Assembly (NCBI GenBank): GCA_903894155.1
Contig: CAITPF010000094.1
Coordinates: 1 to 64,000, forward strand
Length of the DNA stretch: 64,000 bases
Origin: an uncultured beta proteobacterium
Lineage (GTDB): Bacteria > Pseudomonadota > Gammaproteobacteria > Burkholderiales > Burkholderiaceae_B
Direction: 5' to 3'
The notes under the pieces were generated by a model that was not told where the DNA came from, ran no database searches, and saw only the letters and a program-made list of their open reading frames with translations. Positions 7,606 through 19,852 of this stretch are shown in pieces. Both the position numbers and the translations under genes were made by a program. The number at the start of each line of letters is the position of its first letter. Positions within the stretch are counted from its first letter, which is position 1.

Positions 7606-10600
7606 TCAAGTACGCCTCAGGTCGAGTGTAAAGGGAAATTCCGGGCTAGGGGGCTGGGGCTGCAGCTGCATCACGCCGGGCGTATGCTCCAGCCGGAAGA
7701 ACCGCGCCAGGCGCCGGCTCTCCGCCTCGAACGCGTTGACGGGAAGCGTGTCATAGCTGCGTCCGCCCGGGTGCACTACGTGGTAGCGGCACCCACCGAG
7801 TGAGCGCGAGAGCCAGTTATCCACGATATCGAACGAGAGCGGGGCGTGTGCGTCGATCGAAGGGTGCAAAGCCGAGGGCGGTGACCAGGCCTTGTAGCGC
7901 ACGCCCATCACAAACTCGCCTTCCACGCCGGTCGGTTGCATCGTCGGCGCAACGCCGTTGATCGCGATGGCGTAACGGTTATCGGTGTAGCCCGAGACCT
8001 TCAGCTCGATGCGCTCGACCGACGAGTCGACATAGCGCACGGTGCCGCCCGCGCCACCTTCCTCGCCCATGACATGCCAGGGTTCGAGTGCGCTGCGCAA
8101 GGTCATGCGCATGCCGCGCACATCCGTCTCGCCGATCATCGGGAAGCGGAACTCGGCGTGCGGCGCGAACCATGCGGCATCGAACGGATAGCCGGCATGG
8201 TTGAGCTCGGCAATGACATCCTCGAAGTCCATCAGCACGAACGTCGGCAACATGAAGCGATCATGCAGCTGCGTGCCCCAGCGCGTCAGGCGGGTTTTCG
8301 AGGCGGGCTGGTACGGCGTTTTCCAGAACCACGCCACGAGCGCGCGAATCAGCAGCTGCTGCACCAGGCTCATGTGCGGGTGCGGCGGCATCTCGAACCC
8401 CCGCAGCTCCAGCAGGCCCAGACGCCCGGTCGGCCCGTCGGGTGAGTAGAGCTTGTCAATGCTGAATTCGGCGCGATGCGTGTTGCCGGTCACGTCGATC
8501 AGGATGTTGCGCAGCGCGCGGTCGACCATCCAGGGCGGGCATCCGCCGGGCTCGCTCATCTGGCGCTCGATCTCGCGCAGCGCGATCTCAAGCTCGTAGG
8601 TCTGGTCGTTGCGGGCCTCGTCCACACGCGGCGACTGGCTGGTCGGTCCGATGAATAACCCGGAGAACAGATACGACATCGACGGGTGGTTGTGCCAGAA
8701 CGTCAGCAGGCTCGCCAGCACGTCCGGCCGGCGCAGGAACGGGCTGTCCGCCGGCGTGGCCGCACCCATGACGAAGTGATTGCCCCCACCCGTCCCGGTG
8801 TGGCGCCCGTCGATCATGAACTTTTCCGTGCTCAGGCGCGTCTGGTGCGCGGCCTCGTACAGGAACTCGGTGTGGTCGACAAGCTCGCTCCAGTCGGACG
8901 AGGGATGAATATTGACCTCGATGACGCCCGGGTCCGGGGTGACCTGCAGGACCTGCAGTCGCGGATCCCTTGGCGGCGGGTAGCCTTCGATGACGATGCT
9001 GTAATCGAGCGCCTGGGCGGTTTCCTCCACGGCGCTCAACAGAGCAAGGTAATCCTCGAGCGCCGCGACCGGCGGCATGAAGACATACAGCACCGAGCTC
9101 GGCGTACCCTTGAATTCCTCTTGCGGGCCGTTGGCCCGATGCGGATTGCGCGTTTCCACGCACAGGGCCGTGCGCACGGTCGTGCGCGCCGATTCGAACT
9201 TCTCCGGTGGTGTCTTCTGCGGCAGGCTGTCCTTGTCGGACGCGGCCACAGCCTCCTCACCGGTGCCGCGGACCTGCTGTCGCAATGCCGCGGGGCCAGG
9301 CAAGGCGTCGCGCGGCGCGAACGGATCCGCGTCGATGTTGAAGGGGTAATCGGTAGGCGCCACCCATGGCAGGGAATCCAGCGGCAACCGGTATCCCATG
9401 GCGGAGTCGCCCGGGGTCAGGGCCATGCGCCCGTCACGCAGATACCACGGGCCAGACTCCCAGCGGGTGCCGGCACGCGTGGGCTTGTCCGAACGCCGGA
9501 TTGGCAGTGCGTAACCGACCGGCTCAGAGAGGTGGTGCTCAAAGACCCGGCGCAGCCGCGCGCGCTCCATTTCGTCATCCAGGCGCGCGTCATACGGATC
9601 AACGTTGACGGGCAGTCGCCCCTCGCGCCACAGGAAGTACCAGGCGTCCTCAAAGCCAGGCTCGATATAGTCGCGCGAAAGCCCAAGCCGGTCGACCAGC
9701 GCATGCATGAAAATGTGCGCATCGTCGACGCCGTAGTGATGCGTATCGCGCTCGTCGGCAAGCAGCGCCGGGTTGCTCCAGCACGACAAACCGTCCTTGC
9801 GCCAGTAAGCGGAAAGCGACCAGCGTGGCAGTTGCTCGCCGGGATACCACTTACCCTGCCCGAAGTGCAGGAATCCTCCCGGCGCGTAGCGCGACGACAG
9901 CTTGTGCATCAGCTCCGCGGCAAGCCCTCGTTTGGTCGGGCCAAGCGCCGCTGTATTCCACTCTTCGCCGTCGCGGTCCAGCGCCGAGACGAACGTCGGC
10001 TCCCCGCCCATCGTCAGCCGCACGTCGCGCGCGGACAGATCGGCATCCACCGCGTGACCAAGCGCTTCGATATCCCGCCATTGCTCCTGCGCGTAGGGTT
10101 TGGTCACGCGCGGGGATTCCTGCACCCGGAACACCTCCATTTGGTGCATGAATTCGACTTCGCAGGGGTCGTGTGCACCAGAAATGGGCGCGGCCGACGA
10201 GGGTTCGGGCGTGCACGCCACCGGAATGTGCCCTTCGCCGGCCAGCAGGCCCGATGTCGGATCCAGGCCGACCCAGCCGGCGCCGGGCAGGTAAACCTCG
10301 CACCAGGCGTGCAGGTCGGTGAAGTCCTTTTCCGCGCCGGTCGGGCCGTCTACCGCCAGGACGTCGGGCTTGAGCTGGATCAGATACCCCGAAACAAACC
10401 GCGCCGCCAGACCACGCTGGCGCAGGACCTGTACCAATAGCCAGGCAGAATCGCGGCACGAACCTGAGCCGAGCTCGAGCGTATGTTCAGGCGTCTGCAC
10501 GCCCGGCTCCATGCGAATCGTGTAATCCACCCGCCGGTGCAGCATGCTGTTGACTTCGACGAGGTAGTCAATCGTACGCATCGCTTCGGTTGGCAATTTG

Positions 10601-10995
10601 GCCAGCAACGACGCCAGGAGCGGCCCGGGCGCTTGCTTGCGCAAATACGGCGTAAGATCGGCCGTGAGCTCCGGTTCGTAGGAGAACGGGAATTTTTCCG
10701 CCTCTGGCGTCAGGAAGAAATCGAACGGGTTGTAGACCGACATCTCGGCGACAAGATCGACCGTGATCTCGAGTTTGCGCGTGGGCGTCGGGAACACCAG
10801 CCGCGCCTCGTAGTTCGAAAACGGATCCTGCTGCCAATTGAGGAAATGCTCCTCGGGCGTGACCCTCAGCGAATAGGAAAGGATTCGCGTGCGGCAGTGC
10901 GGGGCCGGGCGCAGCCTGACGACTTGCGGCCCGAGACCGATTCGTTTGTCGTAACTGTAGGAGGTTACGTGATGGAGTGCGACATGGATGCTCAT
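7606..10995 (-). CDS. Large transglutaminase-like / DUF2126 protein
   Basis: N-terminal transglutaminase ([53 protein letters not shown]) followed by DUF2126-like region ([25 protein letters not shown]). Confidence 0.95.
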   Translation of the reverse strand: [1129 protein letters not shown]

Positions 10996-11007
10996 AGCCT
11001 TTCACCT

Positions 11008-11023
11008 AGCAATAAGCATGCCA
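11008..11023 (-). promoter_or_regulatory. sigma-54-like -24/-12 element (minus strand TGGCATG-CTTA-TTGCT)
   Basis: Reverse complement of 11008-11023 reads TGGCATGCTTATTGCT; matches TGGCAYG-N4-TTGCW. Predicted start lies within a few nt of the 10995 ATG. Confidence 0.5.
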
Positions 11024-11046
11024 ATTTGCCCGCTTTGTAACGCCTT

Positions 11047-11062
11047 TGGCATGGATGTTGCT
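11047..11062 (+). promoter_or_regulatory. sigma-54-like -24/-12 promoter (TGGCATG-GATG-TTGCT)
   Basis: Sequence tttggcatggatgttgcttatcc; matches TGGCAYG-N4-TTGCW; about 28 nt between predicted TSS and ATG at 11101. Confidence 0.7.
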
Positions 11063-11100
11063 TATCCTGTGATGAAACTAGGGTCATAGAAGGTGTCCAG

Positions 11101-12573
11101 ATGGTCAAAGCGGTCCCCATGAAGGCATTCGACGAAATGGTCGAAGGCGGCTTGTATCGCGGCGCCCAGGAACTCGGTGACCCCGAACGCCTGCGAACAC
11201 ACTACGGAAAATTCGCCGCCTGGCTGGGCCGGCAGCCTGAACAAACCATCGCGGCACGACGCGAGGAGGCGGAATTACTGTTTCGCCGCGTCGGGATCAC
11301 GTTCGCGGTCTATGGCGACAGCGACGGAACCGAACGCACGATTCCGTTCGATCTTATACCCAGAATCTTTCCGGCAAATGAATGGACGCGGCTCGAGCGG
11401 GGGCTGCGCCAGCGCGTGCAGGCGCTCAACATGTTCCTGCACGATGTCTACCATGAGCAGCATATCCTGAAGGAAGGGATCGTGCCGGCCGAGCAAGTGC
11501 TCAACAACTCGCAGTATCGCCCCGAGATGAAGGGCATTGCCGTCCCGCTCGGTATCTATGCGCACATCGCCGGCATCGACATCGTGCGCGCCACGCACGG
11601 CCCGGACGTCGGCAAGTTCTTCGTGCTCGAGGATAATCTGCGCGTGCCGTCGGGCGTGTCCTACATGCTGGAAAACCGCAAGATGATGATGCGGCTGTTC
11701 CCGGAACTGTTCGCCAGCCATCGCGTGGCCCCGGTCGCCCACTACCCCGATCTGCTGCTCGACACGCTGCGCCAGTCCGCGCCGCACACCGAGCGCCCGA
11801 ATGTCGTCGTGCTCACGCCAGGCATGTATAACTCCGCGTATTTCGAACATGCGTTCCTCGCCCAGCAAATGGGCGTGGAGCTCGTCGAGGGCCAGGACCT
11901 CTTCGTGAAGGACGACGTGCTCTACATGCGCACGACGCAGGGGCCGCGCCGCATCGACGTCATCTATCGGCGCGTCGACGATGATTTCCTGGATCCTGAG
12001 GTCTTTCGCGAAGATTCGACGCTCGGCGCCAAGGGGCTCATGCGCGCGCTGCGCGCGGGCAACGTGTCGATCTGCAATACCATCGGCACGGGCGTGGCAG
12101 ATGACAAGTCGATCTATCCCTACGTGCCGGAGATGATTCGTTTCTACCTTGATGAAGAGCCGGAGCTCGCCAACGTGCCGACCTTCATGTGCCGCAAGCC
12201 CGACGAACTCGACTATGTCATCAGCAACATGGCGGAGCTGGTGGTCAAGGAAGTCCACGGTGCGGGCGGCTACGGCATGCTGGTCGGCCCTGCGTCGACG
12301 CGTGCCGAGATCGACGATTTCCGCACGCGCGTGCTGGCCAACCCGACCAATTACATCGCGCAACCGACGCTCTCGCTCTCGACCTGCCCCACGTACGTCG
12401 AATCCGGCGTCGCCCCGCGGCATATTGACCTGCGCCCGTTCGTACTGTCGGGCCGGCAGGTGCGGCTCGCGCCAGGGGGGCTGACGCGCGTGGCGCTCAA
12501 GGAAGGGTCGCTGGTGGTGAATTCCTCTCAGGGCGGAGGCACCAAGGACACCTGGGTGCTCGAAGAAAACTGA
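11101..12573 (+). CDS. Circularly permuted type 2 ATP-grasp protein (COG2308-like, DUF404/DUF407)
   Basis: GITFAVYGDSDGTERTIPFDLIPRI, LEDNLRVPSGVSYMLENR, VKEVHGAGGYGMLVGP. Confidence 0.95.
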   Translation: MVKAVPMKAFDEMVEGGLYRGAQELGDPERLRTHYGKFAAWLGRQPEQTIAARREEAELLFRRVGITFAVYGDSDGTERTIPFDLIPRIFPANEWTRLERGLRQRVQALNMFLHDVYHEQHILKEGIVPAEQVLNNSQYRPEMKGIAVPLGIYAHIAGIDIVRATHGPDVGKFFVLEDNLRVPSGVSYMLENRKMMMRLFPELFASHRVAPVAHYPDLLLDTLRQSAPHTERPNVVVLTPGMYNSAYFEHAFLAQQMGVELVEGQDLFVKDDVLYMRTTQGPRRIDVIYRRVDDDFLDPEVFREDSTLGAKGLMRALRAGNVSICNTIGTGVADDKSIYPYVPEMIRFYLDEEPELANVPTFMCRKPDELDYVISNMAELVVKEVHGAGGYGMLVGPASTRAEIDDFRTRVLANPTNYIAQPTLSLSTCPTYVESGVAPRHIDLRPFVLSGRQVRLAPGGLTRVALKEGSLVVNSSQGGGTKDTWVLEEN

Positions 12574-17724: not shown

Positions 17725-19221
17725 CTAGCCTGCGCCGGCCTGGGATTTTCTCAACGGCGCCGTGGGAATACGCAGCAGTTCACGGTACTTGGCGACCGTA
17801 CGGCGCGCGATCTTCACGCCTTCTGTTTCAAGCACCGCGACGAGCTGACTATCCGAGAGCGGACGCGACCGATCCTCGGCCACGATGAGTGCCTGGATGC
17901 GCGTCTGCACCGACGTCGCGGACGCGCCCTCGCCACCCCCGGATCCGGCCGACAGACCCGCGCTGAAAAACCGCTTGAGCTCAAGCGTGCCAAACGGGGT
18001 GAGCATGAACTTCTGCGTCGTCGCACGCGAAATCGTCGACTCATGCATCCCGAGCTCGGCGGCGATGTCCTTCAGGGTGAGGGGCCTGATGGCTTCCCAG
18101 CCCCGCGAAAAAAAGGCCTGCTGGTGTACGACGATGGCCTGCGAGACACGCAGGATCGTCTCGAACCGCTGGGCGACGTTGCGGATCAGCCAGCGCGCCT
18201 CCTGGAGTTGACCGTGCAGCGCGCTGTTGGTGCCGGCGCGCGGGCTGCCGAGCGCCTCGGCGTAGAGCTGATTGATCCGCAAGCGCGGAACCACGGCGTC
18301 ATTGAGCATCGCCACCCACCCCGCGCGCGTCTTGCGCACAATCACGTCCGGTATCGCGAAATCCGCAGCCGGAACGTTCCACGCGCTGCCGGGGCGTGGA
18401 TTGAGTCGCAGCACCAGCGCGTGGGCCCGGCGCAACAGCTCGGCATCGCACTGCAGCGCCTCGCGCAGCCGCGCCATATTGCCTGTCGCGAGCAAGGGCA
18501 AGTGACGCTGGCACAACGCGCGAGCCACCCCGATCAGTTCGGCATCCCGTGCCTCGGAAAAATGCACCGGATCCGCGTAGGCGAGCTGCAAATCCAGGCA
18601 CTCCGCGAGATCCCGTGCGCCGACACCCGGCGGATCGAACGAATGCAACAGGTTGAGCGCCGCGCGAAAGTCCTCCGCCTCGATGCCGAGCGCGGGCTCA
18701 ATCCAGCCGACGATCTCCTCGATGGGTGACGCAAGCATGCCATCGTCATCAAGCTCATCGATCAGCATCTCGACCAGCGCCGCATCGCGCGCGGAAAAGC
18801 GGGTTGTCGCGAGCTGCGCCAGCAGGTGCTCGCGCAGTGTGGTCTGGCGCACTGTCTCGGGCCGTGTGTCGCTCTCGTCATCGCGCGAGGAGCGGGCTTC
18901 ACCGGAATACTCCGTGCGATCGCGCTCGAATTCGCGGTCCGATTCCGCCTTGTCGCTATCGGCCGCCGGGGCCTCCGGGGCTTGCTCGGTCGACGCGGCG
19001 GAATCACCCGGCGCGTCAGATCCCGGCCAGTCCGCGGGGGCCGCCACGGGCGCGGCTGACGGGTCGCCCTCCTGCTCCAGCATCGGGTTTTCCGCGATCG
19101 CCTGGGAAACTTCGGCCTCAAGATCAAGCGTCGAGAGTTGCAACAGACGGATCGATTGCTGCAATGCGGGGGTCAGAGTCAGGTGCTGACCATGGCGAAG
19201 TTCGAGAATGTGGCGACTCAT
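17725..19221 (-). CDS. rpoN: RNA polymerase sigma-54 factor
   Basis: MSRHILELRHGQHLTLTPALQQSIRLLQLSTLDLEAEV; LTLKDIAAELGMHESTISRATTQKFMLTPFGTLELKRFF; ARRTVAKYRE RpoN box. Confidence 0.97.
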   Translation of the reverse strand: MSRHILELRHGQHLTLTPALQQSIRLLQLSTLDLEAEVSQAIAENPMLEQEGDPSAAPVAAPADWPGSDAPGDSAASTEQAPEAPAADSDKAESDREFERDRTEYSGEARSSRDDESDTRPETVRQTTLREHLLAQLATTRFSARDAALVEMLIDELDDDGMLASPIEEIVGWIEPALGIEAEDFRAALNLLHSFDPPGVGARDLAECLDLQLAYADPVHFSEARDAELIGVARALCQRHLPLLATGNMARLREALQCDAELLRRAHALVLRLNPRPGSAWNVPAADFAIPDVIVRKTRAGWVAMLNDAVVPRLRINQLYAEALGSPRAGTNSALHGQLQEARWLIRNVAQRFETILRVSQAIVVHQQAFFSRGWEAIRPLTLKDIAAELGMHESTISRATTQKFMLTPFGTLELKRFFSAGLSAGSGGGEGASATSVQTRIQALIVAEDRSRPLSDSQLVAVLETEGVKIARRTVAKYRELLRIPTAPLRKSQAGAG

Positions 19222-19237
19222 AGGTACAATATTTTGC

Positions 19238-19852
19238 ATGATGAATAACTTCAGTGCCGAAAATCTGCGCCAGGACACGCATTTACTGCGTTCCACGCTG
19301 CTCAAGCTGGCGATTCCCAGGCTGCTCACCCGGGTTGCGGTCGTGCTCGCCACGGTCGCCGTCTGGCTCTGGCTGTGCTCGACCATCCTGCAGCGCGGCC
19401 GGACCGTGCGCTATGACGGTTTTGAGGCCTTTGGCCCTCAGGTTGTCGATTTTCTGGTCCGGATCAACCCGTACATCTGGTGGGGCGTCGTGCTGATCCT
19501 GTCACTTTGCGTGCTGGGCGGGTTGCGCGGCTGGCTGCGCCGCAGCTACGCCCGTGGCCGGGCCGCCACGGTGCCGCTGGGGGTGGTCACCCACCTGGCG
19601 ACCAGTCTTTCGCCGGAAGCGCTCGACGTGCTCCGCTGGGTCTGGGAAGACAAGGAAGTCCCCATCACCGTCGGCATGCTGTATGCAACGTTGCGTCAGA
19701 TGCGCACCGGACGCGTCAACAAGATGGCACTGGCGCGTGCGCAAAAGGCCGCGCTCGATCGGGCGGCCGAGCCTCCCCCGGCGCCGCTCTATCCCCAGGG
19801 GCCAGCGCCGGGCGCCCCCGCAGGTCCGCGCGAACCCACCCTCTTCGCCTGA
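19238..19852 (+). CDS. hypothetical membrane protein
   Basis: Two hydrophobic segments; ORF with consistent coding composition; divergent from rpoN. Confidence 0.65.
   Translation: MMNNFSAENLRQDTHLLRSTLLKLAIPRLLTRVAVVLATVAVWLWLCSTILQRGRTVRYDGFEAFGPQVVDFLVRINPYIWWGVVLILSLCVLGGLRGWLRRSYARGRAATVPLGVVTHLATSLSPEALDVLRWVWEDKEVPITVGMLYATLRQMRTGRVNKMALARAQKAALDRAAEPPPAPLYPQGPAPGAPAGPREPTLFA

What the first reader, a model, noticed from the sequence alone, without database searches (positions are those of the whole stretch)
11008..11062. Back-to-back divergent sigma-54 -24/-12 elements controlling the ATP-grasp/alpha-E/transglutaminase cluster
The 105-bp divergent intergenic region holds two TGGCATG-N4-TTGCT motifs on opposite strands (plus 11047-11062; minus 11023-11008), each close to the sigma-54 consensus TGGCAYG-N4-TTGCW. 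The plus copy places the TSS about 28 nt before ATG 11101. The minus copy would start within a few nt of ATG 10995, so it is either leaderless, non-productive, or the TSS is displaced. rpoN is in the same window. This points to nitrogen or stress control by an unidentified enhancer-binding protein.
Basis: partly seen in the sequence, partly recalled or inferred. Interest (0 to 1): 0.72.

Follow-up and report, generated by a model that had tools for sequence, protein, structure and literature searches.

The report
Back-to-back nitrogen-starvation promoters, one leaderless
Two real, evolutionarily conserved sigma-54 (nitrogen-starvation type) promoters sit back to back between two halves of a peptide-ligase/transglutaminase gene cluster; nitrogen control of this cluster is already known, but the tight geometry, a start site that falls almost on the start codon, and the absence of the usual activator site are unusual.

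Summary
In detail: two exact TGGCAYG-N4-TTGCW elements lie on opposite strands (11023-11008 and 11047-11062), 23 bp apart. They are not chance. The own genome has 20 exact sites against 3 for the reversed control. The pair recurs in 12 of 13 same-genus genomes with both genes closely divergent (one more, diverged, genome set aside); motif positions are 96% conserved, flanks 49-53%. Sigma-54 elements precede the ATP-grasp gene in 62 of 80 named loci (control 0) and DUF2126 in 35 of 36 loci where it heads its own unit (control 0). Sigma-54/NtrC control of this cluster is published for Burkholderia cenocepacia (and NtrC for Pseudomonas putida), so the core claim is not new. The activator is most likely NtrC: in 7 of the 12 pair-bearing genomes it is the only sigma-54 activator found. 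Unusual features: the minus element is 10-13 nt from the DUF2126 ATG in all 12 genomes, so its transcript should be (near-)leaderless; the 23-bp gap is nearly constant although its sequence is not; and no canonical NtrC site lies nearby, unlike other nitrogen promoters of the same genome. No transcription start site has been measured.

The parts
11047..11062 (+). sigma-54 -24/-12 element TGGCATGGATGTTGCT driving the ATP-grasp/alpha-E arm
   Evidence: exact match; conserved in 12 genus loci; sigma-54 element at this gene in 62/80 named loci, control 0/80
11008..11023 (-). sigma-54 -24/-12 element TGGCATGCTTATTGCT driving the DUF2126 arm
   Evidence: exact match; conserved in 12 genus loci at 10-13 nt from the ATG; DUF2126 has its own sigma-54 element in 35/36 loci where it heads a unit
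11024..11046 (.). 23-bp gap between the two elements; length nearly constant (22-24 bp in 10 of 12 genomes), sequence not conserved
10996..11007 (-). 12 nt from the minus element to the DUF2126 ATG; predicted start site at about 10997-10996 (inferred, not measured)
11063..11100 (+). 38 nt from the plus element to ATG 11101; predicted start site at about 11073-11074 (inferred, not measured)
7606..10995 (-). transglutaminase-like/DUF2126 putative amidoligase, 1129 aa
   Evidence: PF09899, PF08379, PF01841
5016..7586 (-). circularly permuted ATP-grasp + alpha-E fusion, 856 aa
   Evidence: PF14403, PF04174, PF04168
4129..5091 (-). transglutaminase-like protein, 320 aa
   Evidence: PF08379, PF01841
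11101..12573 (+). circularly permuted ATP-grasp protein, 490 aa
   Evidence: PF14403, PF04174
12598..13554 (+). alpha-E protein, 318 aa
   Evidence: PF04168
17725..19386 (-). RpoN (sigma-54), 553 aa
   Evidence: PF04552, PF04963, PF00309

Best explanation
Both elements are working sigma-54 promoters that turn on the two arms of the ATP-grasp/alpha-E/transglutaminase/DUF2126 cluster together when nitrogen is short. Two sigma-54 holoenzymes can sit back to back, 23 bp apart, and phosphorylated NtrC is the most likely activator of both. The plus transcript has a normal short leader (about 27 nt). The minus transcript starts at or within 0-3 nt of the DUF2126 ATG and would be translated as a leaderless mRNA. 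Shown by sequence: the elements, their conservation, the fixed geometry, and the presence of RpoN and NtrC. Inferred: the start sites, NtrC as activator, simultaneous occupancy, and leaderless translation.
For: Exact consensus twice. Own-genome sites 20 against 3 reversed, lying at glnK, glnA, amtB-type, urtA and amino-acid transport genes among others. Element positions 96% conserved against 71-77% for the N4 and 49-53% for the flanks in 12 genomes. Sigma-54 element before the ATP-grasp gene in 62/80 loci, control 0/80. Sigma-54 element before DUF2126 in 35/36 loci where it heads its own unit, 0/11 where it lies inside the operon, reversed control 0/47. Minus element to ATG 10-13 nt in 12/12, always ATG, with no conserved Shine-Dalgarno in that stretch and no alternative in-frame start in the first 16 codons. 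NtrC is the only strong PF00158 protein in 7 of 12 pair genomes and is confirmed as TIGR01818. Published: B. cenocepacia I35_5080-83 (DUF404/407, DUF403, two transglutaminase-like proteins) are among the common targets of sigma-54 and NtrC, with table values of -6.0 to -9.4 for the ntrC mutant (PMC5491218); P. putida PP_2685-2688 NtrC-controlled and induced by nitrogen limitation (PMC7801951).
Against: No canonical NtrC site (GCAC-N7-GTGC) lies near the pair in the own genome or in any of the 12 pair genomes (0/12 on each side), while chosen nitrogen promoters of the same genome have one. No start site is measured here. Jezberella montanilacus keeps the divergent genes and rpoN but has lost both elements (L014/L034), so the pair is not indispensable. 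The 12 genomes are related, so 12/12 is not 12 independent observations (about 8 lineages by eye).
Confidence: 0.72

Rival explanations
1. Both elements are sigma-54 promoters, but the activator of this pair is another enhancer-binding protein with its own, unrecognised site, not NtrC.
For: No canonical NtrC site at the pair. The own genome encodes 6 strong PF00158 proteins. Several pair genomes carry a GTGC-N6-GCAC-like inverted repeat in the plus leader (sequences), a different shape from the NtrC site.
Against: Seven pair genomes have no strong activator other than NtrC. In other Burkholderiales 24/60 ATP-grasp sigma-54 promoters have an NtrC site against 1.7 expected. The published activator of the cluster is NtrC.
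Confidence: 0.18
2. Only the plus element is productive. The minus element binds holoenzyme but serves as a silent or regulatory site, and DUF2126 is transcribed from another promoter with a normal leader.
For: The predicted minus start leaves no room for a Shine-Dalgarno. The own genome shows an AAGG-like stretch just before the ATG that could be a ribosome site of a longer transcript. Widespread intragenic sigma-54 binding is known in E. coli (PMC4591121, title and abstract only).
Against: The Shine-Dalgarno-like stretch is not conserved. The minus element is as conserved as the plus one. DUF2126 orthologues that head their own unit elsewhere in the order have a sigma-54 element, mostly with a normal leader. 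The large transglutaminase-like gene falls with the cluster in the B. cenocepacia ntrC mutant.
Confidence: 0.1
3. The two arms are one inverted repeat: an operator for a dimeric regulator, or an RNA hairpin, that happens to resemble sigma-54 sites.
For: The arms are reverse complements at the 12 informative positions.
Against: The N4 stretches of the two arms are not complementary, and exactly the sigma-54 positions are conserved. The gap ranges from 22 to 57 bp. Other families have only one arm per gene, or the two elements about 2.6 kb apart.
Confidence: 0.03

Closest known systems
NtrC/sigma-54 regulon cluster I35_5080-83 (BCAM1233-1236) of Burkholderia cenocepacia H111 (PMC5491218)
   Same: Same protein families (DUF404/407 ATP-grasp, DUF403 alpha-E, transglutaminase-like proteins), same order Burkholderiales, sigma-54 and NtrC dependent under nitrogen limitation.
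   Different: Listed there as consecutive genes I35_5080-83; no back-to-back promoter pair or leaderless start was described in the passages read.
Anbu operon PP_2685-2688 of Pseudomonas putida (PMC7801951, PMC6376114)
   Same: ATP-grasp, alpha-E and transglutaminase genes under NtrC, induced by nitrogen starvation.
   Different: That operon contains Anbu; the own genome here has only HslV and has DUF2126 and a fused ATP-grasp/alpha-E protein instead.
Divergent sigma-54 promoters of the Desulfovibrio vulgaris orp operons (PMC3897727)
   Same: Two divergent operons co-activated by sigma-54 and one enhancer-binding protein.
   Different: There functional IHF sites, and activator palindromes, belong to the region around the two promoters; here only 23 bp separate the elements and no activator site is recognisable.
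Leaderless mRNAs in proteobacterial start-site maps (Sinorhizobium meliloti PMC3616915, Bradyrhizobium japonicum PMC4842269)
   Same: Start site at an AUG with no Shine-Dalgarno.
   Different: Those are mapped experimentally, and the motif found upstream of B. japonicum leaderless mRNAs is an extended -10 (sigma-70 type), not sigma-54.

Membership tests
sigma-54-dependent promoter | TGGCAYG-N4-TTGCW with GG and GC at fixed spacing | tested here: met
   exact on both strands
sigma-54-dependent promoter | selective conservation of the element positions in relatives | tested here: met
   96% motif against 49-53% flanks in 12 genomes
sigma-54-dependent promoter | RpoN and at least one AAA+ activator encoded by the genome | tested here: met
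   rpoN in the window; 6 strong activators in the own genome
sigma-54-dependent promoter | rpoN-dependent transcript starting about 11-12 nt after the element | not testable with these tools
   needs 5'-end mapping in wild type and an rpoN mutant
NtrC regulon | NtrC encoded in the genome | tested here: met
   TIGR01818 679 bits, cut-off 558.6, on the same contig as glnA
NtrC regulon | NtrC-type enhancer site upstream of the promoter | tested here: not met
   no site scoring 13 or more within 260 bp upstream of either promoter in any of 12 genomes, and none above background within -700/+450 at the own locus; so regulon membership is inferred, not established
NtrC regulon | orthologous cluster NtrC-dependent elsewhere | tested here: met
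   literature only: PMC5491218, PMC7801951
leaderless mRNA | start codon AUG at or within a few nt of the 5' end | tested here: inconclusive
   predicted from the conserved 10-13 nt spacing and ATG in 12/12; the 5' end was not measured
Anbu operon | Anbu gene present | tested here: not met
   the only PF00227 protein in the genome reads as HslV

The most novel reading that the evidence does not exclude
A genus-wide pair of back-to-back sigma-54 promoters held at a near-constant 23-bp spacing, activated by NtrC without a canonical enhancer site, with one promoter producing a leaderless mRNA. That would be an enhancer-poor, sterically paired form of sigma-54 control.
Probability: 0.3. Interest if true: 0.62.

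Novelty: new variant of a known kind. Interest (0 to 1): 0.45.

Why it matters
Sigma-54/NtrC control of this poorly understood amidoligase/transglutaminase cluster is already published, so the finding mainly extends it and shows that the control is order-wide and applies to both arms. The new part is the architecture. It offers a natural test of whether two sigma-54 holoenzymes can be activated side by side, whether NtrC can work there without its usual sites, and whether leaderless translation is used for a nitrogen-starvation gene. It also strengthens the link between this cluster, of unknown biochemical role, and nitrogen scavenging.

Tried and rejected
Motif counts in the window alone: not significant with mismatches. 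Inverted-repeat operator or hairpin: rejected by the variable gap and the non-complementary N4. NtrC site in the window: the 64 kb has more weak matches than shuffles (67 against 47 at up to 3 mismatches), but none of weight at the pair. 'Chance pair': rejected by reversed controls of 0/398. Strict-consensus pair search in relatives found only the own genome and an unrelated G028 locus, which looked like non-conservation until one mismatch was allowed. In the first scan of relatives, minus-strand loci were read in the wrong orientation; this was corrected. NCBIfam has no model for the cluster proteins. Paper searches for leaderless or back-to-back sigma-54 promoters gave no direct precedent in this open-access library, which is incomplete.

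Full report
What is there. The 105 bp between the DUF2126 start (ATG at 10995, minus) and the ATP-grasp start (ATG at 11101, plus) carry two perfect TGGCAYG-N4-TTGCW elements: plus 11047-11062 and minus 11023-11008, with 23 bp between them. Pfam gives transglutaminase/DUF2126, an ATP-grasp/alpha-E fusion and a transglutaminase on the minus arm, ATP-grasp and alpha-E on the plus arm, and RpoN at 17725-19386.

Is it more than chance? The loose motif is no more frequent in the window than in shuffles, so statistics from the window alone are weak. The whole genome has 20 exact sites against 3 for the reversed pattern. Their neighbours include P-II (glnK), glutamine synthetase followed by an ntrB-like gene, an AmtB-type transporter, a urea-type ABC binding protein and other nitrogen transport genes (named here by reading the translations). 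Head-to-head pairs with 10-40 bp between occur in 8 of 398 Burkholderiales genomes, with 0 in the reversed control, and in 2 of 369 genomes of the class, one of them the own genome.

Conservation in the genus. Thirteen same-genus genomes have the ATP-grasp gene with its upstream region and a DUF2126 start directly divergent at close range, plus a diverged fourteenth (L015). Twelve of the thirteen (L001-L006, L008-L013) have both elements. Element positions are 96% conserved, the N4 71-77% and the flanks 49-53%. The thirteenth, Jezberella montanilacus (L014/L034), has lost both although it has rpoN. Rows are related: about eight lineages by eye.

Conservation in the order. Among 80 named loci, nearly all Burkholderiales by record title, 62 have a sigma-54 element with at most 2 mismatches on the plus strand within 250 bp of the ATP-grasp match; the reversed control has none. 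DUF2126 has its own element in 35 of 36 loci where it heads a separate unit and in 0 of 11 where it lies downstream in the same operon. The minus element is therefore an inherited promoter of DUF2126, not an echo of the plus one.

Geometry. The minus element lies 10-13 nt from the DUF2126 ATG in 12/12 genomes. With GC at -13/-12, the start site falls about 11-12 nt after the last base of the element (general knowledge of sigma-54 promoters), that is, on or within about 3 nt of the ATG. The stretch has no conserved Shine-Dalgarno, and no other in-frame start exists in the first 16 codons. In most other Burkholderiales the DUF2126 leader is normal (element to ATG mostly 55-80 nt), with a few near-leaderless cases (Limnohabitans Jir61 L106 at 11 nt, and L053 at 10 nt). 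The gap between the elements is 22-24 bp in 10 of 12 genomes, 32 and 57 in the others, while its sequence is not conserved and the plus leader varies from about 38 to over 100 nt. A constraint on gap length is plausible but rests on few lineages.

Which activator. RpoN is found in 31 of 32 genus genomes. Strong PF00158 proteins (E below 1e-50) number six in the own genome, but only one in G001, G003, G004, G009, G015, G017 and G019, all of which carry the pair. All seven of these, and the own genome's best hit, are NtrC by TIGR01818. These are incomplete assemblies (76-96%), but seven separate absences make a missed activator unlikely. Canonical NtrC sites (GCAC-N7-GTGC upstream of sigma-54) occur in 21 of 32 genus genomes, control 0, so NtrC uses its usual site there. 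At the pair there is none: 0/12 upstream of either element and nothing above background within -700/+450 at the own locus. Eight own-genome promoters used as a positive set all have one, but they were picked as nitrogen-type from sites already inspected, so that 8/8 is a yardstick, not a test. In other Burkholderiales 24 of 60 ATP-grasp promoters have a site, 1.7 expected; for DUF2126 promoters it is only 3 of 33, 0.6 expected. So NtrC is favoured by elimination and by literature, while its site is missing; how it would act (weak sites, half-sites or from solution) is open.

What is known. In B. cenocepacia H111 the cluster I35_5080-83 is among the common targets of sigma-54 and NtrC, with table values of -6.0 to -9.4 for the ntrC mutant (PMC5491218; the unit was not checked). 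In P. putida PP_2685-2688 are NtrC-controlled and induced by nitrogen limitation (PMC7801951). The Anbu operon of ATP-grasp, alpha-E, transglutaminase and Anbu is described in PMC6376114; the own genome lacks Anbu (only HslV). Divergent sigma-54 operons with shared activation are known in D. vulgaris (PMC3897727).

Verdict. Nitrogen control is already known for this cluster. The paired, probably leaderless, site-poor architecture is a new variant worth an experiment.

Noticed in passing
L032/L131 (G028 contig C1: 33556-33621): A second back-to-back sigma-54 pair (gap 34 bp) in a genus relative, between an MlrC-like (M81-type) protein and a tripartite/Bug-type substrate-binding protein (names from reading the translations).
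   Followed up: partly
L162 (G358), L163 (G297), L167/L168 (G253, G223): Other head-to-head sigma-54 pairs in Burkholderiales at unrelated genes, gaps 23, 22 and 30 bp; two lie before a type IV pilin gene.
   Followed up: partly
L014/L034 upstream region: Jezberella montanilacus lost both sigma-54 elements but has an NtrC-like palindrome TGCACTTTTTAGGTGCA close to the DUF2126 start.
   Followed up: partly
L003, L006, L008, L010-L013, plus leader: A GTGC-N6-GCAC-like inverted repeat or related GCGC-rich block between the plus element and the ATP-grasp start in several relatives, absent from the own genome; possible regulator site.
   Followed up: no
L053 and L106 (Limnohabitans and relative): DUF2126 sigma-54 element 10-11 nt from its ATG outside the genus: possibly a second origin of a leaderless start.
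   Followed up: no
L113 (G000:C2) and L128 (G000:C414): Two short contigs carry near-identical sigma-54 sites TGGCACGATAGTTGCA with similar downstream sequence: a duplication or two strains in the assembly.
   Followed up: no
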